From: Polytrichum commune
Lineage: Eukaryota; Streptophyta; Polytrichopsida; Polytrichales; Polytrichaceae
Assembly: GCA_950295325.1 (NCBI GenBank)
Contig: OX485806.1
Span: 41,478,001-41,542,000, forward strand
DNA: 64,000 nt
Direction of reading: 5' to 3'
The translations under genes were made by a program, and so were the position numbers. Every line of letters starts with the position of its first letter. Position 1 is the stretch's first letter. The notes under the pieces were generated by a model. That model was given only the letters and a program-made list of their open reading frames with translations, ran no database searches and was not told the DNA's origin. Of this stretch, positions 7,641 to 61,460 are shown piece by piece.

Positions 7641-8508
7641 ATTGACCCAATATGTACATGTATACATGCATGTAACTTAAGAATATTAAATAAAATAAGT
7701 GTAGCCCTTATCGGCTATATTTTTATAATTATTAATCATGCAATGAAGTGGGCTAGTGATGAAAACCATCATGTAATATAAAAGTTTACAAATGAAAGTA
7801 AAGTAGTATAGAGAAATGCACATTGTTGAAAATGGGCGATGTAGTGGAGACTCGGAGGGGTCACTCCCCCTTGTCGTGTAAATAGCGATCGTGTGTCAGT
7901 GCAGCTCGAGTACCAACCACCACTAACAAACAACACTAAAACATAGCAAAGTCACACATAAACAACACACCTCGACACAAAATGCTCTATTCCTGCCATT
8001 GTTGTGAGGAGAGATTCTTAGGTAGTGGTAGGAAAATGAGAGATGTGCATTTTATTTTATTTTCTTAAGCAACAGGGCCTCTTCATTTTGACCACCAACC
8101 GCAGGCGGGTGCCGGTTGGTCGCGGTTGCTTTCAATTTTTGTTTAAGTGTTGTTTTGGGGAAGAGGATCCAGTGTTGTTCTTGCATTGTTCCTTGTATTT
8201 TGTTTTGGTACCTTCCCCTGTGGCGGGCTGTAGTGCTGGAGTGTTCTAGCAATGCCCCATTTTGTATAGTCCTAGATTGTGATAGGGTACTGTGGAGGTA
8301 AGGTCGGATTAATAACCGACGGGACCTTTGTTTGTGCACCAAGTGGGCGGTGCTTGTTTTCACTTGTGGTGAGGCTGGGTTAATGACCAGCAGACCATAA
8401 GTTTTGGTGGTGGTTGCAGGTGCAGGTTGCCTTTGACCCTTTTTGTCTTTGTACCTCGATACTAATTCATTTGGGTTGTTGATTCGGTGACCATCCCATT
8501 GTGGGTTT

Positions 8509-10950
8509 ATGGTTACAACTCGTACTCAACACTATCGTTCTCCGTCCCCAGGAGCATCGGAAGGTCATCCCTCGGACCTCTCGGACGTTGAACCAGTGGT
8601 AGCACCCAACGAGGCTTTTCAACCTACTTCGGCGTGGGGGATTATCGCTCGGTCTCACGTCCTGTGGGTGGGAACCTTTGACGATATGGAGGAGGAGACT
8701 ATGGGAGGGATACGAGACCGGTTTTCCGGTCGAGCAGGGACCATTTCTCTGCAAGACTGGAAAACCCGGTTTCGTACGTGGATGCGAGAGAAACGCCAAC
8801 GCAATACCAATTTTAACGATTGGTATGTGTTCGAGCTTCTGCCTCAGCATTTGGAGCATGAAACTCTCCAAACTTATGAGCAGTGGACGGAGGCTCATTG
8901 GATGGACCTGCGCCAGGTGGAGCGATACTGGGAGACTCGGGTTGAGTTGGTATCCGCATTGAAGGAAGGCGCAACTTCCAGTTTCATGGCCGTCCCTGAG
9001 GTTAAGTCGGAGGTGCCGGAGGGAGTATTTGTGGTGGACGTGGAGGGAGCTTCTCCTGGTGAACCCAAGGATAAGGGTTCTGCTCCTGCTGTGGCGAGTA
9101 TGTCGAGCCCCATTCTTCCACTCTCCCATTATGCCCAGACTACACAGGCGGCTATTGCCTCTTTGGGGGCTCCGCCAGTTTTTGAGCCGTTGCGGGCATT
9201 TGAGCTGCATCTACATGAGGAGTACGGAGGTTTCCGTCGGGACCAGATGCAGCGGATACAAGATTTTAGACGGGAGAAGGACGATACACCTCGTACCATG
9301 TATACGAGGTTGGCGAGGTTTGCCAGAGAATCTGGAGGTGTGTTTGCGGAAAGTCAATTGGTGAAGGTGTTTTTGTCCAAGATTGACAAACGCCTCCTTG
9401 ATTTGGCACTGCCCAGGATCATCATGGATTATGGTGGTCGGGCGACAGTCGCAGAGGCATTCGCCGTGGTAGAGCAGTGTGATCGTGCATTATGTCAGCA
9501 CGATGCCACTGATTTGGTGTCCTTGCTAGTGGATTCTAACAAGTCCAGGAAGGCTCCAATCGCGACTGCGGGGTTGGCGGAGGCCGAGGTAGACAAGACC
9601 ATGTATTGTTGGTCTTGTGGGCAGGCTGGCCACGCTAAGAAGGACTATCCTTCAAAGGAAAAGCAAGCCCAGACTGTCACTACTCCGAAGCGGAAACCAT
9701 TTGTTCCCACAAAGGGCTCGGCGAAGGGGACGACGGGTAATCAGTTACCCAAGCAGTTGAAGTGTTCCCATTGTGGGCGGAACAATCACGCGGTAGAGAA
9801 CTGCTTTGCTCTCCATCCTGAGAAACGTCCTTCTTCCGACCGGGAAAAGACGTTGGAGGCGAAGATTGGAGCCATGGAGGAGAGGTTCAAAAGCTTGGCG
9901 TCATCCGGCCAAATTTTGGCCAGACCGTCTTCCTCCGGAGCTCAGGCTAGTTCTTCCACTCCGGATTACTATATGTTCGGAGCCTCGGGCGAGGTGGTGA
10001 GTTTCGCGGCCGTGACACGTGCTCAAGCTGTATCACAATCCATACCTTCGATCACAAATGAATATGTGGCAAGCTCGCGAGCTCGGGACAATGCACCCGC
10101 GGACCAAATTGGTCAGGCACGACTACCATTATCTTTTGGATTGGCCGATGCCGTCCAATCTGTCAGTGGTCGTCATCCGAACGATGAGGTTTCACATTCA
10201 GCGACCAATGTGGCGCACACGTTGGCATCCAAGGTGTTGCACACACCTTTGTTTACGGCCATGGAGTGGTCATCGCCAAAGTTCCAACCTGCTAAGGTTT
10301 TTCACTTAGTAGGTAGGATTTTGGAAGGGAAGGCATCCTTACCTTCTTTGACCGTGGTTCAAGCCACTACGGACATCCCTGCTTTTGAAGATCCTGAGGA
10401 TGTGGCCAAACGGCGAGCGAGACTTGCGGCAGAGACCATTGCGTCTTTTGACGCACACGCCTCAGATGACAAGGCACCGACCACGTTTTATGACTCACCA
10501 GTATCCTCGGGTGCAGCCTATCTGTCTGATGTCGCTGCTAGACCTGTCCGCGAGCGCCGCGGTATTCGACCCGGCGTTGTGCGTATGGTGAATGATACTG
10601 GAATTTTGGTGGTCAGTCGCACTGGGAGCAATGCTACTCGGGTTGCTCCCCGTTGTGTGATGATGGATTCAGGGGCACAGCCAGTTATGATCGGCAAGAG
10701 GCTTGCCCAAGAGTTGAGATTGACGGCCGAGGATTTGGCTCCCTGTCCATTCACCATTGTCACATCCATTGGTCACGTGGAGCGGGCCATGGGTTATACT
10801 CGAGAGCCATTACAGCTTAGCTTCCGTGTGAAGCCTGGAGATTCATCCGCACCTCTTCTTCTTAGGTGTGCGGTGACGGATGCGACCAACTATGACATTT
10901 TAGTTGGTCAGCAAGCACTTTACCCTCTTGGTTTTGGTTTGGACAACTAG
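8509..10950 (+). pseudogene. Gag-protease part of the methyltransferase retrotransposon
   Basis: The frame has 813 codons from an ATG. Residues about 220-345 look like a retrotransposon Gag capsid (FEPLRAFELHL ... LVKVFLSKID ... VAEAFAVVEQCDRAL). Two CCHC knuckles follow. The first (9607-9648) reads CWSCGQAGHAKKDY and has Tyr where the last Cys belongs. The second (9763-9804) reads CSHCGRNNHAVENC and is intact. Near the C-terminus, MDSGAQPVMIG (Asp-Ser-Gly at 10666-10674) followed by YDILVGQQALYPLGF is a pepsin-like retroviral protease. The frame ends in TAG at 10948-10950, but the same frame stays open into the methyltransferase. The stop therefore looks like a point mutation in a Trp (TGG) or Gln codon rather than a true terminus; programmed read-through is the alternative. 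Confidence 0.85.
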
Positions 10951-12273
10951 ACTGAGGAGGCGTGGATCCAACCAGGTTGGTCGGCTGGGGATGGCCGCAG
11001 GGAACTTATTCCCGTGGCTTTCGCGGTGGCCGCGACCATAGCACCATTATCTATGGTTTTTGGATGTGGTGCTATGGTGGACACATTGCCTTATGGTTCC
11101 GCACTGTTGGAGGAGTCATTGGCATTCATGGAAAGTACAGACGATCAACGGGATATGGCACCTAAGGGTGCATTGGTGCGCCATCCCAAGGATCCCCTTC
11201 CTCCTTGGCGTGATTCCACCGAGCTATTTCGGAGGTGCGAGGATATTGCTCACTCTCTCACTCCTAGGACACCGGTCATACCGGGTGTCCTCTCGGCATT
11301 GGCACATCCCATTTTATGGCAGCCGCCAGAGGTGGGGATTACTTTGGTGGAACTGTTTGGGGGCATCGGCACAGGCTTAGCGGCCGTATTGGAGGTTGGC
11401 CTCACGGTTAGACGGTATGTCTATGTGGACAACTCTCAAGTGTCCACCCGTGTGGCTCGTCACCATCTTCACCAATTGATGGTATTGTATCCCCAGCAGT
11501 TACCTCCAACTACCATTCGTGGGTGTTTTTCACGTCTCCCTTGTGATGTCACACTCATCAGTGAGGCCGACTTACGACACTTAGGTCCGGTGGATATGGT
11601 GATTGCGGGATGGCCATGCCAGGGCCATTCACGTGCTGGAGCAGGCGGAGGACTAGAGGATCCCAGGTCTACTCTATTTTGGGACCTCATCCGCCTCATG
11701 CAGTGGTGGTATTCCCACCAACCTTTCCCTCCAGGGTATATTTTTGAGAATGTACCTTTGTTGGGAGACTCTCGGGACAAGGTGTTGGAAGGCGATTATT
11801 ATGTTTGTCAACACCTTGGAAATCCCATTTTTGTGGATGCCGCGAGCATTGGTTCTTATGCCCACCGGCCTCGGTGGATTTGGATCAACCTCGCACCGTC
11901 ATCTACTTTAGCTGTAGCATTTTCTGCAGTGCCTCCACCTTTTGATCAAAAGGTGGATGACATCTTGGATCCAAACCGGACTTCTATGCCAGTTGTTCGA
12001 GATGATTTACCCCCGTTGGCATTGGTCAACAAAATGAGGGCACCACGGAGAGCCTTTCCCACGTTTATGACGTTTCCACAATCATTCGCTTTCCACGATA
12101 GGGGGCCGGGTATGGTGTGGGATGTTCACACCAAAACCCACACCGAACCATTGGCTGACGAATGGGAGCGTGCCATGGGATTCCTCACTGGCACCACCGC
12201 AGCTCCCGGCCTTTCTGAGGGCCAACGACGTTTCGTGTTGGGCCAAGCTATGGATCTTCATACTATGGTGTGA
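10951..12273 (+). pseudogene. C5-cytosine DNA methyltransferase domain inside the retrotransposon polyprotein
   Basis: It lies in the same frame as gag-protease. C5-methyltransferase motifs appear in canonical order: motif I LVELFGGIGTGLAA (from 11344); motif II-like YVDNSQVSTRVARHH; motif IV IAGWPCQGHSRAG with the catalytic Cys at 11617-11619; motif VI IFENV (Glu-Asn-Val at 11746-11754); motif VIII AHRPRWIWINL; and a motif X-like C-terminus ERAMGF ... GQRRFVLGQAMDL. No catalytic motif is visibly damaged, although the domain is enclosed by stop codons (TAG 10948-10950, TGA 12271-12273). It would transfer methyl from S-adenosylmethionine to C5 of cytosine, plausibly on the element's own DNA. 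It sits between protease and RT, where host-gene capture does not disturb the retroviral enzymes. Related retrotransposon-borne enzymes are known from charophytes and dinoflagellates; whether this belongs to the charophyte clade needs a tree. Confidence 0.88.
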
Positions 12274-12594
12274 ACTGTTGCTTTATGCCTTTCATTGCAA
12301 AGGCATCGTGGTGACCAGTGGTTGTCTCTGGGGGCAGAGGACTCTGGTCAGGGGGCACAGCGGTCCACACCCATGGAAGAGGGAATTCACGCCATGGTTG
12401 GAGAAGCCGAACGAATTTTTCAATTCGAGCAGCATGTAATGGAGGAGCTTCGAGCTCAACATTTTTACACTGCTTCGGTTTCTTCGCCTCCGGTGGTGGC
12501 TTCATCATCACATATAGGTGGTGATGAAGAAATGTCAGACTCTAGTACTAGCACCGAGACTGGGGGCATGGTTAATGCCCCCTCCTTTCATTAG
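12274..12594 (+). pseudogene. Linker between methyltransferase and reverse transcriptase
   Basis: About 106 codons stay open in the polyprotein frame between TGA (12271-12273) and TAG (12592-12594). The sequence is Ser/Thr-rich and acidic towards the end (DEEMSDSSTSTETGG), typical of an unstructured linker. A short segment (MEEGIHAMVGEAERIFQFEQ) could be helical. No domain recognised. Its openness between two stops supports a formerly continuous polyprotein. Confidence 0.6.
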
Positions 12595-13250
12595 CAATTA
12601 GAGTCTGTGCCAACATCAGGTGGTTCTCCTTTGGTGGAGAGGGAGACTACAGAGTTTGATGATTGGCCACTTGAATTAGGCCCTCGTCTCACTGGTGCTG
12701 AGGCACGGAAGGTACGAGCATTTATTCGCTCGTACCGTAGATGTTTTGCTTTTAGCCTTCAAGATCTTGAAGGTTATAAAGGAAAACCCATCCACATTCA
12801 GTTGGAGGACGACCATCCCATTTTTCGGAGACCTTACAGGCTCAGTGTTTCCGAGCGGATTGGCGTTCAGGCTCGTTGCCGAGAGCTCTTGGCAGCAGGG
12901 CTAATCGAACTTTCCAACGGGGAGTATGCTTGTGCTACGGTTATGCCATCGAAGAAGGATATCTTTGGCAATTGGACGGAGAAGCGGATGTGTGGGGATT
13001 ACCGTCCAGTTAATCGGAAGACCAAGTCGGATCGATATCCCATGCCAATCCCGGAGGAGTTGTTCGATGCCCTCGGATTTGCTCGAGTCTTTAGCACGTT
13101 GGACTTGAGATCCGGCTATCACCAACTCCCATTACTTGTGGGAGACCGAGTGAAAACCGCATTCTGGGGAGTTGATCAAGATGGGAAGGATCAACTTTAC
13201 CATTGGAAGTTTCTTCCATTTGGCCTGAAAAATGCACCCGCTGAAAAATG
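12595..13250 (+). pseudogene. Reverse transcriptase, palm active site deleted
   Basis: Ty3/gypsy RT fingers and palm are clear: PIHIQLEDDHPIFRRPYRL, then CGDYRPVNRKTKSDRYPMP, then FSTLDLRSGYHQLPL with the first catalytic Asp at 13102-13104, then WKFLPFGLKNAPA. Directly after NAPA the sequence jumps to the segment that normally follows the palm (LRLHHGKCKFFHDRLAYLG, now in another frame from 13263). The YxDD box and its surroundings, roughly 40 residues by family expectation, are missing and the frame shifts. The word CTGAAAAATGCA occurs twice at the junction (about 13226-13250), suggesting a repair or slippage scar. The enzyme cannot be active. Confidence 0.85.
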
Positions 13251-13262
13251 CAGCGGTGAGGA

Positions 13263-14825
13263 TTGCGCTTGCACCACGGCAAGTGCAAGTTTTTCCATGA
13301 CCGGTTGGCATATTTGGGGCATATGATTGTTCCAGGAGGTCTTGGGGTACAACAAGCTAAGGTGGACGCATTGCAGAAGATTCCGGCACCGGTAGATGTG
13401 CCGAGACTTCGTGCTTTCTTGGGCTTGGCGAATTACTATCGGCAATTCGTCAAGAACTTTAGCTTGATTGCCAAGCCGCTCACCATTCTCACGAGCAAGG
13501 ACCAACCTTGGACTTGGGGTCGTGAGCAGCAACAGGCATTTGAGACATTGAAGCAGAAACTGGGTACGGCTCCAGTGCTTCGACGTCCAGATGTCTCCAA
13601 ATCTTTCCAGTTGCATACAGACTGGAGCTCATTGGGTTTGGGAGCAGTTCTTACTCAGAAAGATGATGTTGGCCGGGAGTATGTTGTTGCTTATGTGTCG
13701 CAAAGCAACAACACGGCGGAGGCCAATTATTCGTCCTATGAGGGAGAAGCATTGGCGGCGGTGTGGGCTATTGCCCATTTCCGGCCATATCTTTATGGTC
13801 AACACTTTACTTTGGTGACTGACCATCAGCCGTTACGGTGGTTCATGGAGTCGGATAAGCTTACTGGCAAGCTTGCCAGGTGGGCTTTGTTGCTCCAGGA
13901 GTATGACTTTGAGGTGGTACACCGTGTTGGGATTACCAACATGGATGCAGATGGACTCTCACGCAATCCAAGTCCTTCAGATGAGGACTTGACCGGGGCC
14001 AGGTGGCATGGAGATTGTGATCGAGAGGCGGTTCCAGGTTGGCACGCCACTGCCTACCTCACTTTATTTTCTGGTGCATCTGTTGAGATTCCGATACAGG
14101 GCTTGGATGATGAGACTAAGCGGCCTCAAGCTATTGCAGATATATGGGAGGATCTTCCTGTATTGCATAAGCTTCAACAGGGTACATTTCCTTTGTCTAT
14201 TTCGGCAATGGAAAGGGATAGGATTGGACATCGAATAACAAGGTTCCGTTGGGAGAACGGTTTGTTATTTCGATTGTGGCCGGATGGGACAAGGCGTATT
14301 GTTCCTAGGCCGGATCAGAGGGCCTCCTTGGTGCGACAAATGCACGAGGAACTTGGCCATTTTGGTATACGCAGGACACATTCGATGTTGCGTGGCCAAT
14401 ATTGGTGGACTGGCATGTATCAGCAGGTGGCTGCATATGTCGGGAGGTGTGAAGTTTGTGACCGGGTCAGGTCTAGCTTTAACACCTTATCACCTCAGTT
14501 ACAGCCCTTACCTATCATGGGATTAGGCTACCGTTGGTCGCTGGACTTTGCAGGGCCGTTGGTGGTTACACCACGTGGAGCAAAGTACGTTTTGGTGATG
14601 GTGGAGCATTTTAGCAAATGGATTGAGCTTGTTGCTCTACCCCAGAACTCTGCAGAGTTGGCCGCGGCCGCCTTTTTGGATCGTGTGTTAGCACGTTTTG
14701 GAGCACCAGCTGAGGTGTTGACGGACCAAGGGAGGGAGTTCCTTGGTGTTTTTGAGGAGTTGTACACTAAGGCTCTCATAGATCACCGCACCACCTCTCG
14801 GGATCATCCGGAGGCAGATGGCTAG
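13263..14825 (+). pseudogene. RT connection, RNase H and integrase of the gypsy element
   Basis: The frame opens in the RT thumb (YLGHMIVPGGLGV, FLGLANYYRQFVKNFS). RNase H follows: LHTDWSSLGLGAVLTQ, YEGEALAAVWA and VTDHQPLRWF supply the usual acidic residues. Integrase then shows the HHCC zinc motif (HEELGHFGIRRTH ... CEVCDRV) and the catalytic core with Asp at 14544-14546 (SLDFAGPL) and Asp at 14724-14726 (LTDQGREF). The frame stops at TAG 14823-14825, where gypsy integrases usually have Gln in DGQxE. Two codons later the expected catalytic Glu is Lys (AAA, 14829-14831). Integrase is therefore both truncated and catalytically altered. Confidence 0.88.
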
Positions 14826-15143
14826 GCTAAACGGGTTGTTCAGACAACCAAGCGTGGCTTGAGGAAGTATGGATTGCTTCGGAGAAGCCACCGGGATTGG
14901 GACCTTATGTTGCCATGGATTGCTATGGGTTATCGATTTAGTATGCAGGCCTCTTTGGCATCCTACAGCCCGTATCAATTATTGTATGGACGTGAGCCTA
15001 TACTCCCGAGTTCTATTCGGGAAAAACTAGCTCCTGTTGTGAACTTGGATGACCCAGACCTTTGGGCAGAGTGTTTACAGGAGCGGGCTCAATTTTTCCA
15101 GAGGGCCATGCCTATGGCCATGGAGAATTTGTCCATTGCTCAG
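14826..15143 (+). pseudogene. Integrase C-terminal remnant
   Basis: It continues in frame after TAG 14823-14825 with RVVQTTKRGLRKYG, LPWIAMGYRFSMQAS and SPYQLLYGREPILP, the typical integrase core end, up to FFQRAMPMAMENLSIAQ. It then runs into unrelated AT-rich sequence at about 15143. The expected chromodomain or C-terminal barrel and the 3' LTR are absent, so the element is truncated here by deletion or by a later insertion. Confidence 0.75.
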
Positions 15144-15480
15144 TGGATATCTATTGTCTCATTGGCCATTGATAGAATTTGGATATCTATCCATTTAGAT
15201 ATCCAAATGCACACAACTAGTCAAGCTATCTTTCACTCCACCAAGGGAGAATCCAAGAGTGTAAATAGGGGAAGAAGAACTCAAGATTTATTGCAAAATC
15301 ATGCAATCTACACCTCACACAAGCTCTCTCCACACACTAACTCACAAAACTTGACTTGGCAAGAATGCCAAGCCAAGGAGGAGGCTCCTCACTTAGGAGC
15401 CTTCCTCTCCACATCTAGATTCATCCATCCAAATCTAGATGGATGAAACCCAACGGATAAGGTGCGGCCGTCGACGCCGC
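15144..15480. other. Hairpin-rich sequence abutting the truncated integrase
   Basis: It contains a perfect inverted repeat ATTTGGATATCTA (15177-15189) / TAGATATCCAAAT (15196-15208), a second TTCATCCATC (15420-15429) / GATGGATGAA (15438-15447), and a third GGCTCCT / AGGAGCC near 15383-15401. The origin is unknown. It may be an end of the element that truncated the integrase. Confidence 0.45.
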
Positions 15481-16426
15481 ATACCGTGACACCCTTGTGT
15501 TATGTAACCACGTGCGTACAAAGGATATTTTTATGGGGGCTATTTACCTCCTCATTTGGATTTTTTGGAATTCTTTAAGTAGAAAAAAATCTACTTCACC
15601 AAAGAGATATTGGTGATACAAAAAGGTAATTGTATCACCCTATATGTAATTATAAAGGAAAACCCAAACTATTTCAAGTGATGCTAAATTACTTATAAAA
15701 TTTTGATTTACTCGTTCCATATGAAGGCAAATTCAAAACTCCAATATGGCATGGTGTACATTCACGTTGTTATATATTGGTGAAAGAAAAGTCTACACAT
15801 CATAACTAAAGCATGCCATGCATCTAAGTTAAATGTCAGTTTAGGAATTTGTAATCTAAAAGTGAAATCTACAATCAATACAGTTGAAATGAAACCAATG
15901 ACATGAACAAGAACATAATCAATGAATGTGGCATAAAAACAACACACGCCAAGAAAACCGAGCCAAAAGTTCAATTGCAAAGCTGGATTTTTAGAAAACA
16001 CAAAGAAAAAATGCATTCCACTAAATTTTTAGCAACCCCATACTAGAATGCGAACTTCATGAGATTTAGATGCCAACTTCATAAGACTCAAAATTGAAGA
16101 ACAAGATGGAGCTCCTGTAGCCAAACATAACCACGTACAAGGGTCAAAATTGCAAAGGCCAACAACAAGTCTAGGTGCCAAGTGAGACAAAGGCACAGAG
16201 GCCAACAATAAACTTGCCAAATAAAGGTTTCAAATCATATGCAAGGGAATTACCTTGAACGAGAAGGAATTTGGGTTGTTGCACTGACGCACTAGAGATT
16301 TGAAGCTTGAGCTAGAAGAAGGTAACTACAACGAGCAATGATCTAGACACTCACAATGGTACAAATGAAGTTAAATCAAGTAACTCATTCTTCCCACACC
16401 TTCCCAAGTTCTCAATTTCGTGTACT
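15481..16426. other. AT-rich intergenic sequence
   Basis: No coding region or repeat that I can support. The short minus-strand frames at 15762-16220 have intron-like or random composition. Confidence 0.4.
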
Positions 16427-19849: not shown

Positions 19850-20421
19850 ATCCGAGAAGATAGAAATGCAAGCAAGCAAGTTACAATGTCGCAACCCTTG
19901 CTAGCCCTCCCCCCTTGACCATGTTCTCAATTTCCTTTTCTAGCAAAGGCTACGAACGCTAACCCTTCGCATACCGCCATGCTAATGGTTAGCTCCTCCT
20001 ACCCCAGACCTTATAGTTCATAGGAGGGAACCAACCTTCCTACTTTGCTATCGGGACCCAACCCTTAATCGGTAACCCATTCCTAGATGTGAACTTCCAT
20101 CCATGGAAGTCCAATCCCATGTTGATCATCGCATTGCCGGAGCAACACTACAACAACCCAAAGTGTGGGAGCCAAATATTCTACGGAAATACGGAAATAC
20201 GGATCCATTTTCCGTATTTGACCCTGCTCATATAGGGATAATAGGGTCTCTTAGGTTAAAATTAAATATACTAGGAAATAAGGCGTTCTAAATCTGCCTC
20301 GCACGATAAAAATGACAAAAAAGGGTATTATTACCGGTCCGGCAAATTGGACTAGGGGGGACCGTTTGATCAATGGTCCGGACCTAGTAACGGTTACGCC
20401 AAGATTAACCAACGGTCCGGA

Positions 20422-34166: not shown

Positions 34167-36960
34167 CAAACCAACCTTTCAACTTAGAATTTGGCCTAAT
34201 ACACCAACAGAGATTAAATACAACATGCAACCCCAAGACCTCGAACCTATGTACACAATCAAAATCTTGTGTGAACTTGACCCTATGTATACAATCAAAA
34301 TTTGTTGTGGAACCCCGAACCCCTTGACCCTCTTGGAATCGAGAGGATCCCCACATTATCAACCCTTGACTTCAAATTCTCAAACCAACCTTACAACTTA
34401 GAATGTGGCCTAATACACCAACAAACATTAAACACAACAAGCAACCCCTTAAACGCAACCTATATATACAATCAAATCAGGTGTGAACTCGCCCCTATGT
34501 ACATAGTCAAAATTTGGTGTGGAACCCCGAATCCGATGACCCTCTTGGAACCGAGAGGGTCCCCACATTATCAACCCTTGACTTCAAATTATCAAACCAA
34601 CCTTAAAACTTAGAATGTGGCCTAATACACCAACAAAGATTAAACACAACAAACAACCCCTTGACCCCGAACCTATATATACAATCAAATCTGGTGTGAA
34701 CTCGCCCCTATGTACACAATCAAAATCAGGTGTGGAACCCCGAACCCCTTGACCCTCTTGGAACCGAGAGGATCCCCACATTATCAACCCTTAACTTCAA
34801 ATTATCAAACCAACCTTACAATCTTAGAATCTGGCCTAATACACCAACAAAGATTAAACACAACAAGCAACCCCTTAAACGCAACCTATGTACACTATCA
34901 ACCCCTTAAACTCAAACCTATGTACAAAGGGTTCAGTTGGTGTGAACTCAACCCTATGTACACAATCAAAATTTGGTGTGGAACCCCGAACCCCATGACC
35001 CTCTCGGAACCGAGAGGGTCCCCACATTATCAACCCTTGACTTCAAATTATCAAACCAACCTTAAAACTTAAAATCTGGCCTAATACACTGACAAAGATT
35101 AAACACAACAAGCAACCCCTTGACCCCGAACCTATATATACAATCAAATCTAGTGGGAACTCGCCCCTATGTACACAATCAAAATCTGGTCTCAAACCCC
35201 AAACCCCTTGACCTTCTCGGAACCGAGAGGATCACTAGATTATCGACTTCAAATTATCAAACCAACCTTACAACTTAGAATGTGGCCTAATACACCAACA
35301 AAGATTAAACACAACAAGCAACCCCTTAAACGCAACCTATGTATACAATCAAAATTTGGTGTGAACTCAACCCTATGTACACAATCAAAATTTGGTGTGG
35401 AACCCCGAACCCCATGACCCTCTCGGAATCGAAAGGGTCCCCACATTATCAACCCTTGACTTCAAATTATCAAACCAACCTTAAAACTTAGAATGTGGCC
35501 TAATACACCAACAAAGATTAAACACAACAAACAACCCCTTGACCCCGAACCTATATATACAATCAAATCTGGTGTGAACTCGCCCCTATGTACACAATCA
35601 AAATCAGGTGTGGAACCCCGAACCCCTTGACCCTCTTGGAACCGAGAGGATCCCCACATTATCAACCCTTAACTTCAAATTATCAAACCAACCTTACAAT
35701 CTTAGAATCTGGCCTAATACACCAACAAAGATTAAACACAACAAGCAACCCCTTAAACGCAACCTATGTACACTATCAACCCCTTAAACTCAAACCTATG
35801 TACAAAGGGTTCAGTTGGTGTGAACTCAACCCTATGTACACAATCAAAATTTGGTGTGGAACCCCGAACCCCATGACCCTCTCGGAACCGAGAGGGTCCC
35901 CACATTATCAACCCTTGACTTCAAATTATCAAACCAACCTTAAAACTTAAAATCTGGCCTAATACACTGACAAAGATTAAACACAACAAGCAACCCCTTG
36001 ACCCCGAACCTATATATACAATCAAATCTAGTGGGAACTCGCCCCTATGTACACAATCAAAATCTGGTCTCAAACCCCAAACCCCTTGACCTTCTCGAAA
36101 CCGAGAGGATCACTAGATTATCGACTTCAAATTATCAAACCAACCTTACAACTTAGAATGTGGCCTAATACACCAACAAAGATTAAACACAACAAGCAAC
36201 CCCTTAAACGCAACCTATGTATACAATCAAAATTTGGTGTGAACTCAACCCTATGTACACAATCAAAATTTGGTGTGGAACCCCGAACCCCATGACCCTC
36301 TCGGAATCGAAAGGGTCCCCACATTATCAACCCTTGACTTCAAATTATCAAACCAACCTTTCAACTTAGAATCTGGCCTAATACACCAACAGAGATTAAA
36401 CACAACATGCAACCCCAAGACCCCGAACCTATGTACAGAATCAAAATCTTGTGTGAACTCGACCCAATGTATACAATCAAAATCTAGTGTGAATTTGACT
36501 CAATGTACACAATAAAGATTTGGTGTGGAACCCCGAATGCCTTGATCCTCTCGGAACCGAGAGGGTCCCCACATTATCAACACTTGACTTCAAATTATGA
36601 AACCAACCTTACAATCTTAGAATCTGGCCTCATACACCAACAAACATTAAACACAACAAGCAACCCCTTAAACCCAACCTATGTACACAATCAAAATCTG
36701 GCGTGGAACCCCGAACTCCTTGACCCTCTCGGAACCGATAGGGTCCCCACATTATCAACCCTTGACTTCAAATTATGAAACCAACCTTACAATCTTTGAA
36801 TGTCGCCTAATGCACCAATAAAGATTAAACAAAACAAACAACCCCTTAAACCCAACCTATGTACACAATCAAAATCGGGTGTGAACTCAACCCAATGTAA
36901 ACAATCCAAATCTGGTGTGAAACCCCAAACCCCTTGACCCTCTCGACCCCGAGAGGGTCT
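34167..36960 (+). repeat. ~213-bp satellite with 878-bp higher-order repeat
   Basis: The anchor word CAAACCAACCTT recurs at 34593, 34806, 35052, 35258, 35471, 35684, 35930, 36136 and 36349. The spacing pattern is 213, 246, 206, 213 and then again 213, 246, 206, 213, giving an 878-bp unit of four monomers present twice (about 34570-35450 and 35450-36330) at near identity. Each monomer carries an 11-bp-arm palindrome (GACCCTCTCGG, 2-bp centre, CCGAGAGGGTC, e.g. 34997-35020) and repeated CCTATGTACACAATCAAAAT words. Frames opened by the array repeat identically and are not genes. Confidence 0.92.
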
Positions 36961-37429: not shown

Positions 37430-38408
37430 CTCTTCACATCAGTAGCTCTTCATGCCGAACCCAAGCCTCAAACCAACAGCTCTTCATGCCGAGCCCAAAG
37501 CCTCAAATCAGTAGCTCCTAATGCCGAGCTCAAAATTTCAACCGCAACTCAATTCATGCCGAACCCAAGCCTCAAACCAGCAGCTCTTCATGCCGAGCTC
37601 AAAACTCAAATCAATAGTTTGAATGCCGAACCCAAAGCCTCAAATCAGTAGCTCCTAATGCCGAGCTCAAAACTCAAACCAGCAGCTCTTCATGCCGAGC
37701 CTAAGACTCAAATCAGTAGCTCCTAATGCCGAGTTCAAAACTCAAATCAGTAGCTCTGAATGCTGAACCCAAGCCTCAAACCGCAGCTCATCATGCCAAG
37801 CTCAAAACTCAAATCAGTAGCTCTGAAAGCCGAACCCAAGCCTCAAACCAGCAGTTCTTCATGCCAAGCCCAAAGCCTCAAATCAGTAGCTCCTAATGCC
37901 GAGTTCAAAACTCAAATCAGTAGCTCTGAATGCTGAACCCAAGCCTCAAACCGCAGCTCATCATGCCGAGCTCAAAACTCAAATCAGTAGCTCTGAAAGC
38001 CGAACCCAAGCCTCAAACCAGCAGTCCTTCATGCCAAGCCCAAAGCCTCAAATCAGTAGCTCCTAATGCCGAGTTCAAAACTCAAATCAGTAGCTCTGAA
38101 TGCTGAACCCAAGCCTCAAACCGCAGCTCATCATGCCGAGCTCAAAACTCAAATCAATAGCTCTGAATGCCGAACCCAAGCCTCAAACCAGCAGCTCTTC
38201 ATGCCAAGCCCAAAGCCTCAAATCAGTAGCTCCTAATGCCGAGTTCAAAAACTCAAATAAGTAGCTCTAAATGCCGAATCCAAGCCTCAAACCAGCAGCT
38301 CTTCATGTTGAGCCCAAAGCCTCAAATCAGTAGCTCCTAATGCCGAGTTCAAAACTCAAATCAGTAGCTCTGAATGCCGAACCCAAGCCTCAAACTGCAG
38401 CTCATCCC
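37430..38408 (+). repeat. Tandem array of ~28-bp monomers with 170-bp higher-order period
   Basis: Monomers have the form CTCAAATCAGTAGCTCCTAATGCCGAG / CTCAAACCAGCAGCTCTTCATGCCGAG. The variant TCCTAATGCCGAGTTC recurs at 37721, 37891, 38061, 38231 and 38335, giving three exact 170-bp periods (six monomers each) and one shortened by loss of about two monomers. Confidence 0.85.
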
Positions 38409-51320: not shown

Positions 51321-52295
51321 TGTCGCAACCCTTGCTAGCCCCCCTTGACAATCTTGCCAATTTTCAATTCTAGCAAAGGTTACGAGCACTAACCATTCGC
51401 ATTCCGCCATGCTAATGATTAGCTCCTCCTACCCCGGACCTTATAGTTCATAGGAGGGAACCAACCCTCCTACTTTGCTTTCGGGACTCACCCCTTAATC
51501 GGTAACCCATTCCTAGATGTGGACTTCCATCCATGGAAGTCCAATCCCATGTTGATCATCGCGTTGCCGGAGCAACACTACAACAACCCGTACCATACTA
51601 GGCAACTATGGCCTCACATTGGGCCAATGCCCATGGAGGCCGTGCCGTTCGGCATCGGGTGGGTGAGGCCACACCACCTCACCCATATAAGCCTCTAGGA
51701 CTTTACACGGGGCCCCTTCCCCACCGTCAACCAACCTCTTGTCTCTCCACCAAGAGTTGGGGCCAAGTGGACATTCTCCCTTAGCCGCTGGGCCTAGAAC
51801 CCTCTAGCAGCTTCAGACCATCACAACTTCCTTTTATGATGTTTGATGCTAGCAACCAACCACTCCAACTTCATCTACGTTTCACATAGATGCCGATGGA
51901 CTCCTCACTTGCCCCATTCAGGCAAGTATTGAGGAAGTTATGCCTCTTTTGAATCTTGGCAGTCCCGGGAGTCACTCCCAGGGCACTGATGTACCAGGAC
52001 GCTGTCCCGGGACAGCACCCCACTCAAATGGCCATAACTCCTAGCTCACACCTCCGATTGAGGTGTTCTTGAGCATTCTAGAATCACCACGCCATGAGCT
52101 ACGCATAGCTGATGGCCTTACCCTCATGCCTCCTAGTTTTCGTGGGTGGGAGGCGTTCCCAACGCCCGGGGCCCTCACCCACACTAGGATCACTTGGGCC
52201 CTCTCCCCAACGGCGCCACAAGTCCCGGGTGTCACTCTGGGGCTACCCTTGTGCCCATGGTGTCTTAGGCACTCCTCATGGAGAGGTGCGCGACA
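51321..52295 (-). repeat. 3' LTR of element 2 (L976 family)
   Basis: TGTCGCAACCC to GTGCGCGACA, 975 bp. A purine-rich tract (TTTGGTGCGGGTGAG on the minus strand) immediately upstream is the likely polypurine tract. Confidence 0.88.
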
Positions 52296-53307
52296 CTCAC
52301 CCGCACCAAATGGAGTTGATGCCCTCATCGAGTATACTCGTAGTCGGCACACCAATTCTCAAGTTGCCATCCTCTATGGTGCGGCATTGTGTTTACCTTA
52401 AGGCGCGACCCCTACAATGCATCTTCAAATTTGGCATAGTCCCAAAGGTGTCGTTCCTAGGTGGTCCGTTAGCGACCTTGGATCTCTCCTCCAAGGACCT
52501 AACCTACACTAGACCCACCTACTTTGGGACTCACTTGGGTTGCCCCTCCTTTGGGGCCTCCCCCGTTAGGCTCCACTAGCCTAACATGACACATCTAGGC
52601 GAGACCTCAACACTTCCACTAAGTTGTCTCGGTTGCAACTCCAAGATGGCTTTCCATTGTTAAGCCACGCCTCGATCGCACGGGGGTGATGCCAAGTCCC
52701 GCCCGACTCGGTTCCCACTTTGCTCTTTCAAGACATGGATTCATGACTCCCATGTGCCAACTCTCGTTAGCTCGCGGGTAGCACTTTTATGAGCACGCGC
52801 CATCACCTTGCCCCCGCCCGGACAAGCCCATGGCTAAGAGGTTTCTTGGTTTTATCCAAGGCCCGTCCAAGCCATGGCCCCCACTTACTCGGCTTACCCA
52901 ACCTAGTTTGGCATATCTATTCCTCCTCTTCCATTAACCAAGCACAAGTACAAGACTAGGACCTCATCTCATACTTTTCTCTTCGCACCACTAAAGTTTG
53001 GACTTTATTCCCTCAAGCCAAAGAACAAGTTAATGTTGTGGAGCAATTAGCCTCGAAGCTAAGTGTGTTACTGCGTCTCTCCCCCACTAAAGGAGATTGA
53101 TGTCCTCATCAATGCCTACGCTTCATTTTATTGGAATGTCTAGCCTTAGTTTCTTCAAAGTGCTTTACCAATTCCTTGGCGTTCATCATGTCTCTTGCCG
53201 CTACCCAAACGGCTTCTTTCTCATGGTATCCTCACCATTTCACCAAGTACTCCTTTGTACATTTTCTTTCCTTTTCATTTGGGCTTCCTACACTAGAGGA
53301 TGCCCTC

Positions 53308-54066
53308 CTACCTCATGTTCCAAATGACGTCCACAAGGTCGGGACGTGGCCTAATCACTTGCTTGTGATCGGGCCACAAGGTGTCGTCCTTAAATGGCTT
53401 TAGGAATGAGACATGAAATGTCGGATGCACTTTGATCTCGGGCGGTAATTCCAACTTATACATGTCCTTGAACACTTGTTCCACAATGGAAAACGAAGCT
53501 CCAATTTTAGACATGAACTTTGGAGTGAGGCCTTCCGGCTAAGTGAAGTTGTTCACATTCAACAACACCTTTTGGCCCACCTCATTCTCCACTTCGCGTC
53601 TTCCGGCATTGACTTGCACTTCGTAGCACCTTCGGGCTTTCTCCACCAACAACTTGGTCATCTCCAAGACTTGTTTACCATCCTTGGCCAAGTCCTCACC
53701 ATCTTGGTTGAACTCTAGTGTTGAATGTGCCCCCTTGAGAGCTAGGTTAATAGGTTGGAGCGCATCCACTCCATAAGCCACCACGAAAGACCACCCCTTG
53801 GTAGCCAAGTGCGTGGCTACATTGCAATTACACTCCGCTCGACCCACATAGTCCACCCAATCTCCTTGGTCCGCCCCCACCAAGTTCCTCAAGCATTGCT
53901 TCAAGACTCCATTCACACGCTCCGCTTTCCCATCAATTTGGGAATGTAAGGCCGTGCTAAACCTTAGTTTCATTCCGACCTCCTTAGATAAATGCATTGA
54001 AAATGCACTTGTGAACTTTGAATCTTGATCCGACACAATCACTCTCGGCAACCCGTAGTGCCTCAA
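53308..54066 (-). pseudogene. Integrase of element 2
   Basis: The minus-strand frame 54066-53539 has MRHYGLPRVIVSDQDSKFTS with the second catalytic Asp, HSQIDGKAERVNGVLKQCL with the Glu, DYVGRAECNCNVATH, and a linker. A second frame, 53514-53308, has IVEQVFKDMYKLELPPEI and HPTFHVSFLKPF, the Ty3/gypsy integrase C-terminal module. The frame break near 53530 and loss of a continuous upstream pol make it non-functional. Confidence 0.8.
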
Positions 54067-54408
54067 CCATGCTTTGAGAAAAGGCTATGCAGTCTCCAAC
54101 GGGGTGGCGGTTCCCATAATCGGCACCATGTGTGCCAACTTGGCAAACCGCTCTACCATCAACAAGATGGCATCATACCCATGTGACTCCCGCAAACTTG
54201 TGATCCAGTCCATGCACATACTATGTCATGGTCCCGGCGGGATAGGCAACGGTTGCAAGTAACCGCTTTGCTTTTGGTAAGAGGCTCAGGTCACTTGGCA
54301 CTTCATCCAAGCCTTCACAAAGTGGGTTATATCTTCCTTTATGCACCGCCAATGGTACCTCCTTGACACCATTCTACGGCGGTTTTTTCTTTCTCCTCTA
54401 TGGCCGGC

Positions 54409-58199: not shown

Positions 58200-59477
58200 G
58201 GTAAATTCACTACCCCAAAGCACAAAAGCTTTTAGGTGAGCTTCACAAGAGCAAGGTGCTCAAAGAGGTTAAGTTGGTGGACGGATTGTTCAAGTGCAAG
58301 CAAAGTTGGGTATATGTGCCACAAGGCAAGTTGAGGCTATCGGTTTTGAAGAAGGAATATGATAGCCACATTGCCGGCCTTAGAGGAGAAAGAAAAAACC
58401 GCCATAGAATGGTGTCTTGGAGGTACCATTGGCGGTGCATAAAGGAGGATATAGCCCACTTTGTGAAGGTTTGGATGAAGTGCCAAGTGAACCGAGCCTC
58501 TAACCAAAACTAAGGTGGTTTCTTGCAACCGTTGCCTATCCCGTTGGCGCCATGGCATGGTATGTGCATGGACTTGATCACAAGTTTGCCGGAGTCACAT
58601 GGGTATGATGCCATCTTGTTGATGGTAGAGTGGTTTGCCAAGTGGGCACACATGGTGCCGATTGTGGGAACCGCCACCGCGTTGGAGACCGCATAGCCTT
58701 TTCTCAAAGGATGGTTGAGGCACCACGGGTTGCCAAGACTGATTGTGTGGGATCAAGATCCAAAGTTCACAAGTGCATTTTCAATGCATTTCTCTAAGGA
58801 GGTCGGAATGAAACTAAGGTTTAGCATGACCTTGCATTCCCAAATGGATGGGGAAGCGGAGCGTATGAATGGAGTCTTGAAGCAATACTTGAGGAACTTG
58901 GTGGGGGCGGACCAAGGAAATTGGGCGGACTATGTGGGTCGAGCGGAGTGTAATTGCAATGTAGCCACGCACTTGGCTACCATGGGGTGGTCTTTCGTGG
59001 TGGCTTATGGAGTGGATGCGCTCCAACCTATTAACCTAGCTCTCGAGGAGGCACATTCAACACTAGAGTTCAACCAAGATGGTGAGGACTTGGCCAAGGA
59101 GCAAAAAAAAACAAATCTTGGAGATGACCAAGTTGTTGGTGGAGAAAGCCCGAAGGTGGTACGAAGTGCGAATCAATGCCGGAAGACGCAAAGTGGAGAA
59201 TGAGGTGGGCCAAAAGGTGTTGTTGAATGTGAACAACTTCACTTACCCGAAAGGCCTCACTCCAAAGTTTATGTCCAAAATTGGAGCTCCGTTTTCCATT
59301 GTGGAACAAGTGTTCAGGGACATATATAAGTTGGAATTACCGCCCAAGATCAAAGTGCATCCGACATTTCATGTCTTATTCCTAAAACCATTTAAGGACG
59401 ACACCTTGTGGCCCGATCACAAACAAGTGATTAGGCCACCTCCCCACCTTGTGGACGTCATTTGGAACATGAGGTAG
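58200..59477 (+). pseudogene. Integrase of element 1
   Basis: A degenerate zinc-binding region (EYDSHIAGL ... WRYHWRCIKEDIAHFVKVW, CQ) is followed by the core: MCMDLITSLPESHGYDAIL with the first Asp; a stop near 58694; LRHHGLPRLIVWDQDPKF with the second Asp; and HSQMDGEAERMNGVLKQYL with the Glu. Then NVNNFTYPKGLTPKF and KLELPPKIKVHPTFHVLFL, the C-terminal module, in another frame (to 59477). The three catalytic positions are conserved but the frame is broken at least twice. Confidence 0.78.
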
Positions 59478-60484
59478 GAGGGCATCCTCAAGTGTAGGAA
59501 GCCCAAGTAAAAATGAAAGAAAATGTACAAATGACTACTTGGAGAAATGGTGAGGATAGAATGAAGCCGTTTGGGTAGCAGCAAGAGACATGATGAACGC
59601 CAAGGAATTGGTGAAGCACTTTGAAGAAAGTAAGGCTAGACATTCCAATAAAATGAAGCGTAGGCATTGATGAGGACATCAATCTCCTTTAGTGGGGGAG
59701 AGACGCTAGTAGCACACTTAGCTTCGAGGCTAATTACTCCACAACATGAACTTGTTCTTTGGCTTGAGGGAATAAAGTCCAAACTTTAGTGGTGCAAAGA
59801 GAAAAGTATGAGATGAGGTCCTAGTCTTGTACTTGTGCTTGGTTAGTGGAAGAGGGGGAATAGACATGCCAAACTAGGTTGGGTAAGCCGAGTAATTGGG
59901 GGCCATGGCTTGGAGGGGCCTTGGATAAAACCAAGAAACTTCTTAGTTGTGGGCTTGTCCGGGCGGGGACAAGGTGATGGTGCGTGCTCATAAAAGTGCT
60001 ACCCGCGAGCTAACGAGAGTTGGCGCATGGGAGTCATGAACCCATGTCTCGAAAGAGCAAAGTGGGAACCGAGTCAGGCGGGACTTGGCATCACCCCCGT
60101 GCGATCGAGGCGTGGCTTAACAATGGAAAGCCATCTCGGAGTTGCAACCGAGACAACTTAGTGGAAGCGTTGAGGTCTCGCCTAGATGTGTCACGTTAGG
60201 CTAGTGGAGCCTAACGGGGGAGGCCCCAAAGGAGGGGCAACCCAAGTGAGTCCCAAAGTAGGTTGGTCTAGTATAGGTTAGGTCCTTGGATGAAAGATCC
60301 AAGGTCGCTAACGGACCACCTAGGAACGACACCTTTGGGACTATGCCAAATTTGAAGATGCATTGTGGGGGTCGCGCCCTAAGGTAAACACAATGCCGCA
60401 CCATAGAGGATGGCAACTTGAGAATTGGTGTGCCGACTACGAGTATAGTCGATGAGGGCATCGACTCCGTTTGGTGGGGGTGAG
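59478..60484 (+). other. 3' untranslated region and polypurine tract of element 1
   Basis: It is collinear (inverted) with 52296-53300 of element 2. There is no coding potential beyond shadow frames. GGTGGGGGTGAG at 60473-60484 abuts the 3' LTR. Confidence 0.65.
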
Positions 60485-61460
60485 TGTCGCGCACCTCTCC
60501 ATGAGGAGTGGCCGAAACACCATGGGCACAAGGGGGACCCCGGAGTGACACCCGGGACTTGTGGCGCCATTGGTGAGAGGGCCCAAGTGATCCTAGTGTG
60601 GATGAGGTCCCCGGGCGTTGGGAACGCCTCCCATCCACGAAGACTAGGAGGCACAAGGGTAGGGCCATGAGCTATGCGTAGCTCATGGCGTGGTGATTCT
60701 AGAATGCTCAAGAACACCTCAATCGGAGGTGTGAGCTAGGAGTTATGGCCATTTGAGTGGGGCGCTGTCCCGGGACAGCGCCCTGGTACAGCAGTGCCTG
60801 GGAGTGATTCCCGGGACTGCCAAGGTTCAAACAGGCATTACTTCCTCACCACTTGCCCGAATGGGGCAAGTGAGGAGTCCATCGGCATCTACGTGAAGCG
60901 TAGATGAAGATGGAGTGGTTGGTTGCTGGAATCAGACATCATACAAGGAAGTTATGATGGTCTGAAGCTGCAGGGGGGGTTCTAGGCCCAGCAGCTAAGG
61001 GAAAATGTCCACTTGGCCCCAACTCTTGGTAGAGAGACAAGAGGTTGGTTGACGGTGGGGTAGGGGCCCCGCGTAGAGTCCTAGAGGCTTATATGGGTGA
61101 GGTGGTGTGGCCTCACCCACCCGAGGCCGAACGGCAAGGCCTCCATGGGCTTTGGCCTATTGTGAGGCCATAGTTGCCTAGTATGCTTCGGGTTTTTGTA
61201 GTGTTGCTCCGGCAACGCGATGATCAACATAGGATTGGACTTCCATGGATGCAAGTCCACATTGGGGAAATGGGTTACCGATTAAGGGGTGAGTCCCGAA
61301 AGCAAAGTAGGAGGGTTGGTTCCCTCCTATGAACTATTGGTCCGGGGTTAGAGGAGCTAACCATTAGCATGGCGGTATGCGAAGGGTTAGCCACTCGTAA
61401 CCTTTGCTAGAATTGAAAATTGGCAAGATGGTCAAGGGGGGGCTAGCAAGGGTTGCGACA
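60485..61460 (+). repeat. 3' LTR of element 1
   Basis: It is the same length as the 5' LTR and nearly identical. Differences noticed are GGTAGGGCC for GCTAAGGCC, CATTACTTCC for CATAACTTCC, and GATGGAGTGG for GATGAAGTGG. Confidence 0.92.

What the first reader, a model, noticed from the sequence alone, without database searches (positions are those of the whole stretch)
8509..13326. C5-cytosine DNA methyltransferase fused in frame between protease and reverse transcriptase of a Ty3/gypsy polyprotein
Seen: one reading frame runs from gag (8509) through the protease, a methyltransferase with motifs I, IV (PCQ), VI (ENV), VIII and X-like in canonical order, and into RT, interrupted only by three stops. 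Known: retrotransposon-borne C5 methyltransferases have been described in dinoflagellates and charophytes. Inference: this is such an element, and here the enzyme is part of the main polyprotein rather than a separate accessory ORF. It would let the element methylate its own new DNA copy, perhaps to hide or to regulate itself.
Basis: partly seen in the sequence, partly recalled or inferred. Interest (0 to 1): 0.88.

Follow-up and report, generated by a model that had tools for sequence, protein, structure and literature searches.

The report
Retrotransposon with built-in DNA methyltransferase
A jumping gene in a plant-like genome carries its own DNA-methylating enzyme fused to its coat-and-protease protein, and a virus-style leaky stop codon separates that fusion from the copying machinery; the combination is a new twist on a rare known kind of element.

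Summary
One frame runs gag (8509), protease, C5 methyltransferase (10951-12270), reverse transcriptase, with stops at 10948, 12271 and 12592. The first two are damage of this copy. The third is conserved: a UAG followed by CAATTA, the tobamovirus-type leaky context (UAG CAR YYA). UAG is kept in 88 of 90 alignable copies in the genome and the full motif in 82 of 90; a distant relative has it too. Less damaged copies read Gag-PR-MT, leaky UAG, RT-RNaseH-integrase-PHD finger. The methyltransferase is under purifying selection (dN/dS 0.23), keeps its catalytic cysteine in 37 of 37 rows compared, and is nearest DNMT3 among solved structures. The ends are split direct repeats, DIRS-like, yet 11 of 11 copies checked have 4-bp target duplications. 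The window copy is broken: interior inverted relative to its ends, RT damaged, integrase tail with the PHD finger lost. The closest known element is KnitGypsy-Dnmt3 of Klebsormidium (2018), so a methyltransferase inside a Gypsy polyprotein is not new; I did not find the leaky-stop layout or the PHD-tipped Gypsy integrase in print in my searches. Methylation and readthrough are untested.

The parts
7868..7871 (.). 4-bp target-site duplication, left (CCCT), matching 15492-15495
   Evidence: read by eye; 11 of 11 copies checked have a 4-bp duplication at these ends
7872..7977 (-). terminal repeat B (106 bp), minus orientation
   Evidence: 98% to B1 and B2 of L016
7988..8508 (+). leader of the element interior before the gag ATG
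   Evidence: homologous to the leader of L018 and L014
8509..10590 (+). gag with two CCHC-like knuckles (one degenerate) and a spacer
   Evidence: open frame; zf-CCHC E 5e-4 in related copy L016
10591..10947 (+). aspartic protease region (DSGA motif) up to the private stop
   Evidence: weak PF13650 and PF13975 matches in L016; boundary set by me from the alignment register
10948..10950 (+). TAG, found in this copy only among 21 read at this site
10951..12270 (+). C5-cytosine methyltransferase; catalytic part about 11335-12270, cysteine in GWPCQ
   Evidence: PF00145 E 2.1e-12; DNMT3A best in PDB
12271..12273 (+). TGA, found in this copy only among 25 read at this site
12274..12591 (+). weakly constrained linker to the conserved stop
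   Evidence: dN/dS 0.81 within 20 copies; 33% aa identity between L016 and L118
12592..12600 (+). TAG CAA TTA: conserved stop in tobamovirus-type leaky context
12595..13244 (+). start of the RT open frame, in register with gag
   Evidence: RVT_1; alignment ends 13244
13245..13248 (+). 4 nt in place of about 128 nt of RT; frame shift
13249..15143 (+). rest of RT, RNaseH and integrase, decayed; homology ends before the PHD finger
15204..15491 (-). terminal repeat A (288 of about 333 bp), minus orientation
   Evidence: 97.6% to A1 and A2 of L016
15492..15495 (.). 4-bp target-site duplication, right (CCCT)

Best explanation
This is a decayed, internally inverted copy of a Ty3/gypsy retrotransposon family of a plant-like genome. 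In less damaged copies the RNA is translated by default into Gag-protease-methyltransferase, ending at a UAG. A minority of ribosomes read the UAG through because of the CAR YYA context and add RT-RNaseH-integrase-PHD. The methyltransferase is thus expected at Gag-like amounts in the particle, where it most likely methylates the new cDNA (or host DNA near the insertion), while the PHD finger on the integrase probably binds a histone H3 tail and guides insertion. The integrase inserts a split-repeat unit A-interior-B-A-B and makes a 4-bp duplication. Shown by sequence: domain order, conserved stop and context, purifying selection, split repeats, 4-bp duplications, PHD finger. Inferred: readthrough in vivo, stoichiometry, methylation of cDNA, histone reading.
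For: UAG in 88 of 90 and UAG CAR YYA in 82 of 90 alignable copies, out of 96 places examined. CAR YYA follows the conserved stop in 25 of 25 copies but 0 of 78 other in-register stops in the same copies; in the whole window, both strands, it follows 4 of 1811 TAGs, the conserved one included. A relative from another organism, L118, has TAG CAA TCA between the same two ORFs in the same frame, a different codon inside the same motif, although synonymous sites are saturated or nearly so (pS 0.60-0.81). No ATG in the first 40 codons after the stop in 76 of 82 copies that have the motif; first Met at residue 117 in the 6 sequences looked at. The first 85 codons after the stop are conserved between L016 and L118 (78% aa identity, dN 0.14). 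dN/dS of the MT catalytic part 0.23 within 20 copies, against gag 0.21 and RT 0.15. Catalytic Cys in 37 of 37 MT rows. PHD PF00628 E 1.4e-11 in L016, 1.3e-10 in L118. 4-bp duplications 11 of 11, being the window and the 10 copies whose two ends I fetched. A1/A2 identity 97.3-100% in those 10 copies, which points to recent insertions. CAR YYA drives readthrough in plants, 32% for the TMV site in a reporter test (PMC2754532, passages).
Against: No transcript, ribosome or protein data. Eight of 90 copies lack the exact motif, 6 of them with UAG kept and 2 without. CpG observed/expected of 20 copies is 0.74-0.79, not below the window's 0.65, so there is no footprint of heavy CpG methylation. The related KnitGypsy enzyme showed no activity in yeast. 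Some relatives have no stop between MT and RT (P0146-P0150, P0166), so the leaky stop is not essential to this kind of element. Motif IV is PCQ, not the PCN seen in DNMT3A. Two of 19 copies that hold the PHD region, both otherwise with open ORF2, have lost one zinc ligand.
Confidence: 0.75

Rival explanations
1. RT-IN is made by re-initiation or from a separate RNA, and the UAG is an ordinary terminator that merely happens to sit in frame.
For: 3 of 82 copies have ATG as fifth codon after the stop. Several database ORF2 records begin with M soon after the stop, though gene callers may write M for GTG as well (recalled).
Against: 76 of 82 copies have GTG at that codon, and 76 of 82 have no ATG in 40 codons; same register on both sides of the stop in 18 of 20 copies read at length; the leaky hexamer is kept across near-saturation.
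Confidence: 0.1
2. The methyltransferase does not methylate the cDNA but acts on RNA, on a host DNA target, or as a non-enzymatic nucleic-acid binder.
For: No CpG depletion; KnitGypsy enzyme inactive in yeast, called inconclusive by its authors; PCQ instead of PCN.
Against: Catalytic motifs kept, Cys in 37 of 37 rows, purifying selection. Two SymbioDIRS-Dnmt3 enzymes do methylate CG in yeast (section read).
Confidence: 0.25
3. The methyltransferase is a passenger captured recently, without function for the element.
For: Relatives exist in which it sits elsewhere in the polyprotein (RH-MT-IN).
Against: dN/dS 0.23 within and 0.24 between subfamilies; present in a relative at near-saturated synonymous distance.
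Confidence: 0.04
4. Assembly artefact or bacterial contamination.
For: One relative is annotated as a bacterial MAG protein (P0008) and one lies in a cyanobacterial MAG contig (L118).
Against: 96 places spread over seven chromosome-size contigs, 4-bp duplications, retroelement domains on the same ORFs; the two bacterial labels are better read as plant contamination of MAGs.
Confidence: 0.01

Closest known systems
KnitGypsy-Dnmt3 of Klebsormidium nitens (de Mendoza et al. 2018, PMC5890265)
   Same: Gypsy domains, Dnmt3-related MT inside the polyprotein, repeats with DIRS-like arrangement, MT under purifying selection (paper passages). A partial Klebsormidium protein P0166 has PR-MT-RT-RH-IN and 43% identity over 55% of the MT query; that P0166 is a KnitGypsy copy is my inference.
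   Different: Here MT lies with Gag-PR before a conserved leaky-type UAG, and RT-IN follows; a PHD finger ends the integrase ORF (no PHD hit in P0166, a partial record). The words PHD and readthrough do not occur in that paper's main text; its figures were not seen.
SymbioDIRS-Dnmt3 and SymbioLINE-Dnmt of Symbiodinium (same paper, parts 1-2 read)
   Same: Retroelement-borne C5 methyltransferases; split repeats in the DIRS type.
   Different: Tyrosine recombinase or LINE machinery there; DDE integrase with 4-bp duplications here.
Gag-pol readthrough of MuLV; type I readthrough of tobamoviruses
   Same: In-frame UAG between two coding parts; here the tobamovirus hexamer CAR YYA (PMC11166343 and PMC2194720 passages).
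   Different: In MuLV the stop divides Gag from the rest (protease side recalled) and needs a pseudoknot; here protease and methyltransferase lie before it.
SIRE1 of soybean (Havecker and Voytas 2003; seen only as cited in PMC2194720 and PMC2829016)
   Same: Plant retroelement said to use stop-codon suppression.
   Different: A Sirevirus of the Copia superfamily; the stop lies between pol and an envelope-like gene.
Chromoviruses and Ginger1 transposases (PMC2836005 passages; chromodomain role recalled)
   Same: An extra domain at the C-terminus of a Gypsy-like integrase; one Ginger1 is listed with a PHD finger, and Ginger1 makes 4-bp duplications.
   Different: Ginger1 is a DNA transposon; chromoviruses carry a chromodomain instead.

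Membership tests
Ty3/gypsy retrotransposon | RT-RNaseH before a DDE integrase with H2C2 finger | tested here: met
Ty3/gypsy retrotransposon | one LTR at each end as plain direct repeats | tested here: not met
   B-A-B at the 3' end in 7 of 7 copies given that comparison; A repeat at both ends in 10 of 10
Ty3/gypsy retrotransposon | short target-site duplication and TG...CA ends | tested here: met
   4 bp, 11 of 11, TGTCACGG ... ACGACA
DIRS elements | split direct repeats | tested here: met
DIRS elements | tyrosine recombinase; no target-site duplication (second part recalled) | tested here: not met
   rve and H2C2 found, no PF00589 in the seven L016 pieces scanned; duplications present
KnitGypsy-Dnmt3 kind | Gypsy element with DNMT in its polyprotein and DIRS-like repeats | tested here: met
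   description
KnitGypsy-Dnmt3 kind | MT in the same ORF as RT | tested here: not met
   conserved UAG between them
DNMT3 methyltransferases | closest to DNMT3 among known C5 methyltransferases | tested here: inconclusive
   profile against PDB: DNMT3A 4e-27, DRM2 3e-8 (and 4onj, DRM by recall, 7e-11), HhaI 1e-7, DNMT2 3e-6, no chain named DNMT1 or CMT among 59 at E<=0.1; no tree with host DNMTs could be made
DNMT3 methyltransferases | motif IV PCN as in the DNMT3A row | tested here: not met
   Q after the Cys in 36 of 37 MT rows, K in one
Type I stop-codon readthrough | UAG followed by CAR YYA, downstream ORF in the same frame | tested here: met
Type I stop-codon readthrough | measured readthrough | not testable with these tools
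   needs a reporter or proteomics

The most novel reading that the evidence does not exclude
A green-lineage-wide group of Gypsy elements carries a two-part epigenetic kit: a DNMT3-like enzyme that marks the new cDNA and a PHD-tipped integrase that reads histones. The enzyme has occupied two places in the polyprotein (PR|MT|RT and RH|MT|IN), and in the window's branch a tobamovirus-type leaky stop makes it a Gag-level particle component rather than a rare Pol product.
Probability: 0.35. Interest if true: 0.8.

Novelty: new variant of a known kind. Interest (0 to 1): 0.62.

Why it matters
Why transposons would carry an enzyme that hosts use to silence them is open. If the enzyme is made at coat-protein levels, it belongs in the particle and its target is probably the new cDNA, which is testable with simple reporter and enzyme assays on single parts. 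The leaky stop also gives a clear case of a tobamovirus-type readthrough signal kept by selection in a retrotransposon.

Tried and rejected
Ordinary LTRs: none found around the window copy; the split, inverted arrangement explains why. All three stops as decay: rejected for 12592. Bacterial origin: rejected, though no tree with bacterial enzymes was built. CpG depletion as a footprint of self-methylation: not seen. RNA structure after the stop: a hairpin 25 nt downstream recurs, with three of its pairs showing changes on both sides in 13 sequences (covariation term only -0.39), and single-sequence z-scores are weak in two of three; kept as a lead only. Viral contigs: one search found nothing, the other gave 28 loci that match stretches of up to about 200 residues and were not followed. 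A tree with the host's own DNMT genes, a search for MT-less relatives in the same genome, and naming of the host could not be done because the whole-genome search answered once only. Structure prediction was busy and then switched off. In one search my PHD query was out of frame, so PHD statements rest on Pfam scans and precomputed Pfam columns. Type I labels in the tree include records that may simply be partial (P0136, P0140, P0143).
Full report
What is in the window. The + strand carries one register from an ATG at 8509 to RT: 8491-10950, 10951-12273, 12274-12594, 12595-13326. Pfam recognises DNA_methylase in 10951-12270 (E 2.1e-12), RVT_1 in 12595-13326, and RNaseH, integrase zinc finger and rve in 13260-14822; the gag and protease pieces gave no hit here but weak, sub-threshold zinc-knuckle and retropepsin matches in copy L016. 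The window lies in a 408-Mb genome of 64 contigs; seven contigs of 42-78 Mb, whose lengths are printed, add up to 406 Mb. Named proteins related to this methyltransferase come from liverworts (Calypogeia, Marchantia), Closterium and Klebsormidium, so a bryophyte-like host is my inference.

Copies in the genome. A whole-genome search with the methyltransferase gave 97 rows, two of them pieces of one copy, hence 96 places including the window; the tool calls such counts lower bounds. Twenty copies, chosen for long open frames, were read as 10-kb stretches. In 18 of 20 the open frames on the two sides of the junction (gag-PR-MT, up to 1372 aa; RT-RH-IN, up to 1048 aa) are in the same register; L019 and L023 show a shift. 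In 5 of 20 both ORFs are unbroken.

The conserved stop. At the site of 12592-12594 the 75 remaining places were read as 251-base stretches and added to the 20 and the window. Ninety of 96 could be aligned (at least 180 of 251 columns, over 65% identity; six were dropped). Of the 90, 88 have TAG; TAGCAATTA 62, TAGCAGTTA 19, TAGCAATCA 1, which makes UAG CAR YYA 82 of 90. The remaining eight: TAGTAGTTA 3, and one each of TAGAAGTTA, TAGCATTTA, TAGCGATTA, TACCAATTA, AAGCAGTTA. In 25 copies compared codon by codon (20, the window, and 4 of the second subfamily read from the MT onward) the hexamer follows this stop in 25 of 25, and follows none of 78 other in-register stops. No stop lies at the site of 10948 in 20 other copies nor at that of 12271 in 24 other copies: those two are damage of the window copy.

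An independent relative. A 9.3-kb contig filed under a cyanobacterial MAG (L118) is a relative of the element, most likely plant contamination. It has gag-PR-MT, then TAG CAA TCA, then a 1047-aa RT-RH-IN-PHD ORF in the same frame. Against L016 its synonymous sites are saturated or nearly so (proportion different 0.60-0.81 by segment); amino-acid identity is 0.66 in the MT catalytic part, 0.90 in RT, 0.83 and 0.94 in two halves of the integrase and 0.33 in the linker before the stop. The codon after CAA is TCA instead of TTA, a different residue inside the same CAR YYA. Among database relatives, records 59-69% identical in the MT (P0001, P0003, P0006, P0008, P0009, P0015, P0016, P0026) end 105-123 residues after it, with recurring C-terminal sequences. 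One pair of records (P0131, P0172) shares source and contig length, consistent with ORF1 and ORF2 on one contig (inferred from the tables only).

Why readthrough. UAG CAR YYA is the type I leaky signal (PMC11166343, passages); the TMV site gave 32% readthrough in a plant reporter test (PMC2754532, passages). After the stop, 76 of the 82 copies with the motif have no ATG within 40 codons, and the first Met in the 6 sequences looked at is residue 117, beyond a stretch conserved with L118. Re-initiation is therefore unlikely for most copies; three copies do have ATG at codon 5.

The methyltransferase. A single-sequence search of the PDB ranks DNMT3A first (7e-11). A profile of 50 relatives, which also includes some RT sequence, gives DNMT3A 4e-27, DRM2 3e-8 (4onj, which I recall as a DRM, 7e-11), HhaI 1e-7, DNMT2 3e-6, and no chain named DNMT1 or CMT among 59 at E up to 0.1. 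The catalytic Cys is present in 37 of 37 aligned MT rows, the Glu of motif VI in 36 of 37; the exception, L107, is a copy with a further stop. The residues before the Cys vary (WPC, WEC, PEC), and PCQ differs from PCN of DNMT3A, so I call it DNMT3-like, not a proven DNMT3. dN/dS (my Nei-Gojobori script) within 20 copies: MT catalytic part 0.23, its N-terminal part 0.43, protease 0.44, gag 0.21, RT 0.15, RNaseH 0.12, integrase 0.26, tail with PHD 0.34, linker 0.81. Against four copies of the second subfamily the MT catalytic part has 0.24 and RT 0.14, while integrase and tail rise to 0.62 and 0.76; all four of those copies carry further stops.

PHD finger and relatives. The integrase tail of L016 has a PHD finger (E 1.4e-11) and so has L118 (1.3e-10). 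Of 19 long copies that hold the region (L022 lacks it), 17 keep all eight zinc ligands as I read them; L011 and L018 have lost one each. A search with the tail found 261 proteins, 120 listed, and the listed rows carry a precomputed PHD domain; named sources include Marchantia, Haematococcus, Volvox and Tetrabaena, and one EukProt record appears to be Chromochloris. By local comparison 40 of the 120 also carry a related MT. Long relatives fall into three layouts: gag-PR-MT ending after MT; MT followed directly by RT in one ORF (P0146-P0150 with gag, PR, MT, RT and RH, four of the five with IN; partial records of Klebsormidium P0166, Marchantia P0138, Closterium P0167); and RT-RH-MT-IN, mostly with PHD. 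The third layout is one clade in the MT tree (13 of 37 rows, 100/99) and in the RT tree (10 of 20 rows, 100/99); in the IN tree support is weak (11 of 18 rows, 75/74). No MT-less outgroup was included, so one capture followed by a shift is not separated from two captures.

Ends of the element. Complete copies run A1 (333 bp), interior, B1 (106 bp), A2, B2: the B-A-B arrangement was seen in 7 of 7 copies given that comparison, and A1/A2 identity is 97.3-100% in 10 of 10. With TGTCACGG and ACGACA as ends, a perfect 4-bp duplication flanks 11 of 11 copies, the window and the 10 of 20 whose two ends I fetched; I read these by eye. The window copy is unusual: A (15204-15491) and B (7872-7977) are on the minus strand while the interior (7988-15143) is on the plus strand, so the interior is inverted between the ends; B1-A2, the integrase tail and the PHD finger are missing and RT has lost about 128 nt.

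Known and new. PMC5890265 (parts 1 and 2, section 10, and passages read) describes KnitGypsy-Dnmt3: a Gypsy element with a Dnmt3-related enzyme in its Pol polyprotein ORF and DIRS-like repeats. I found no description of a leaky stop after the methyltransferase (searches; listings only, capped, apart from the papers named here) nor of a PHD finger on a Gypsy integrase in the held library, which lacks most subscription papers; a Ginger1 DNA transposase with a PHD finger is described in PMC2836005 (passages).

What stays open. No expression or activity data exist here. The elements show CpG observed/expected of 0.74-0.79 against 0.65 for the window, which gives no support for strong CpG self-methylation, and the tested Klebsormidium enzyme was inactive in yeast, inconclusively.

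Noticed in passing
7868-15495: The interior of the window copy is inverted relative to its terminal repeats although the 4-bp target duplication is intact; an inversion before or after insertion.
   Followed up: partly
L016:8401-9285 and L118:5400-6629: PHD finger at the C-terminus of the Gypsy integrase ORF; related proteins in Volvox, Haematococcus and Marchantia.
   Followed up: partly
P0145, P0151, P0152, P0154, P0155, P0158, P0160, P0163, P0165 (protein records): Relatives carry the methyltransferase between RNaseH and integrase, one clade in both MT and RT trees.
   Followed up: partly
L118 and protein record P0008: Plant-like retrotransposon sequence filed under bacterial MAGs, which makes a false bacterial cytosine methyltransferase record likely.
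   Followed up: partly
12620-12650: Hairpin 25 nt after the leaky stop that recurs in 13 aligned sequences, with three doubly changed pairs; a possible stimulator.
   Followed up: partly
34167-36959 and 37434-38406: Arrays of repeated units roughly 78-90% alike, from the self-comparison.
   Followed up: no
51321-54408 and 58373-61460: 3.1-kb inverted repeat pair, 94% identical, with repeats of about 977 bp at 20421, 30005, 51320, 54409 and 60485; probably another LTR element family.
   Followed up: no
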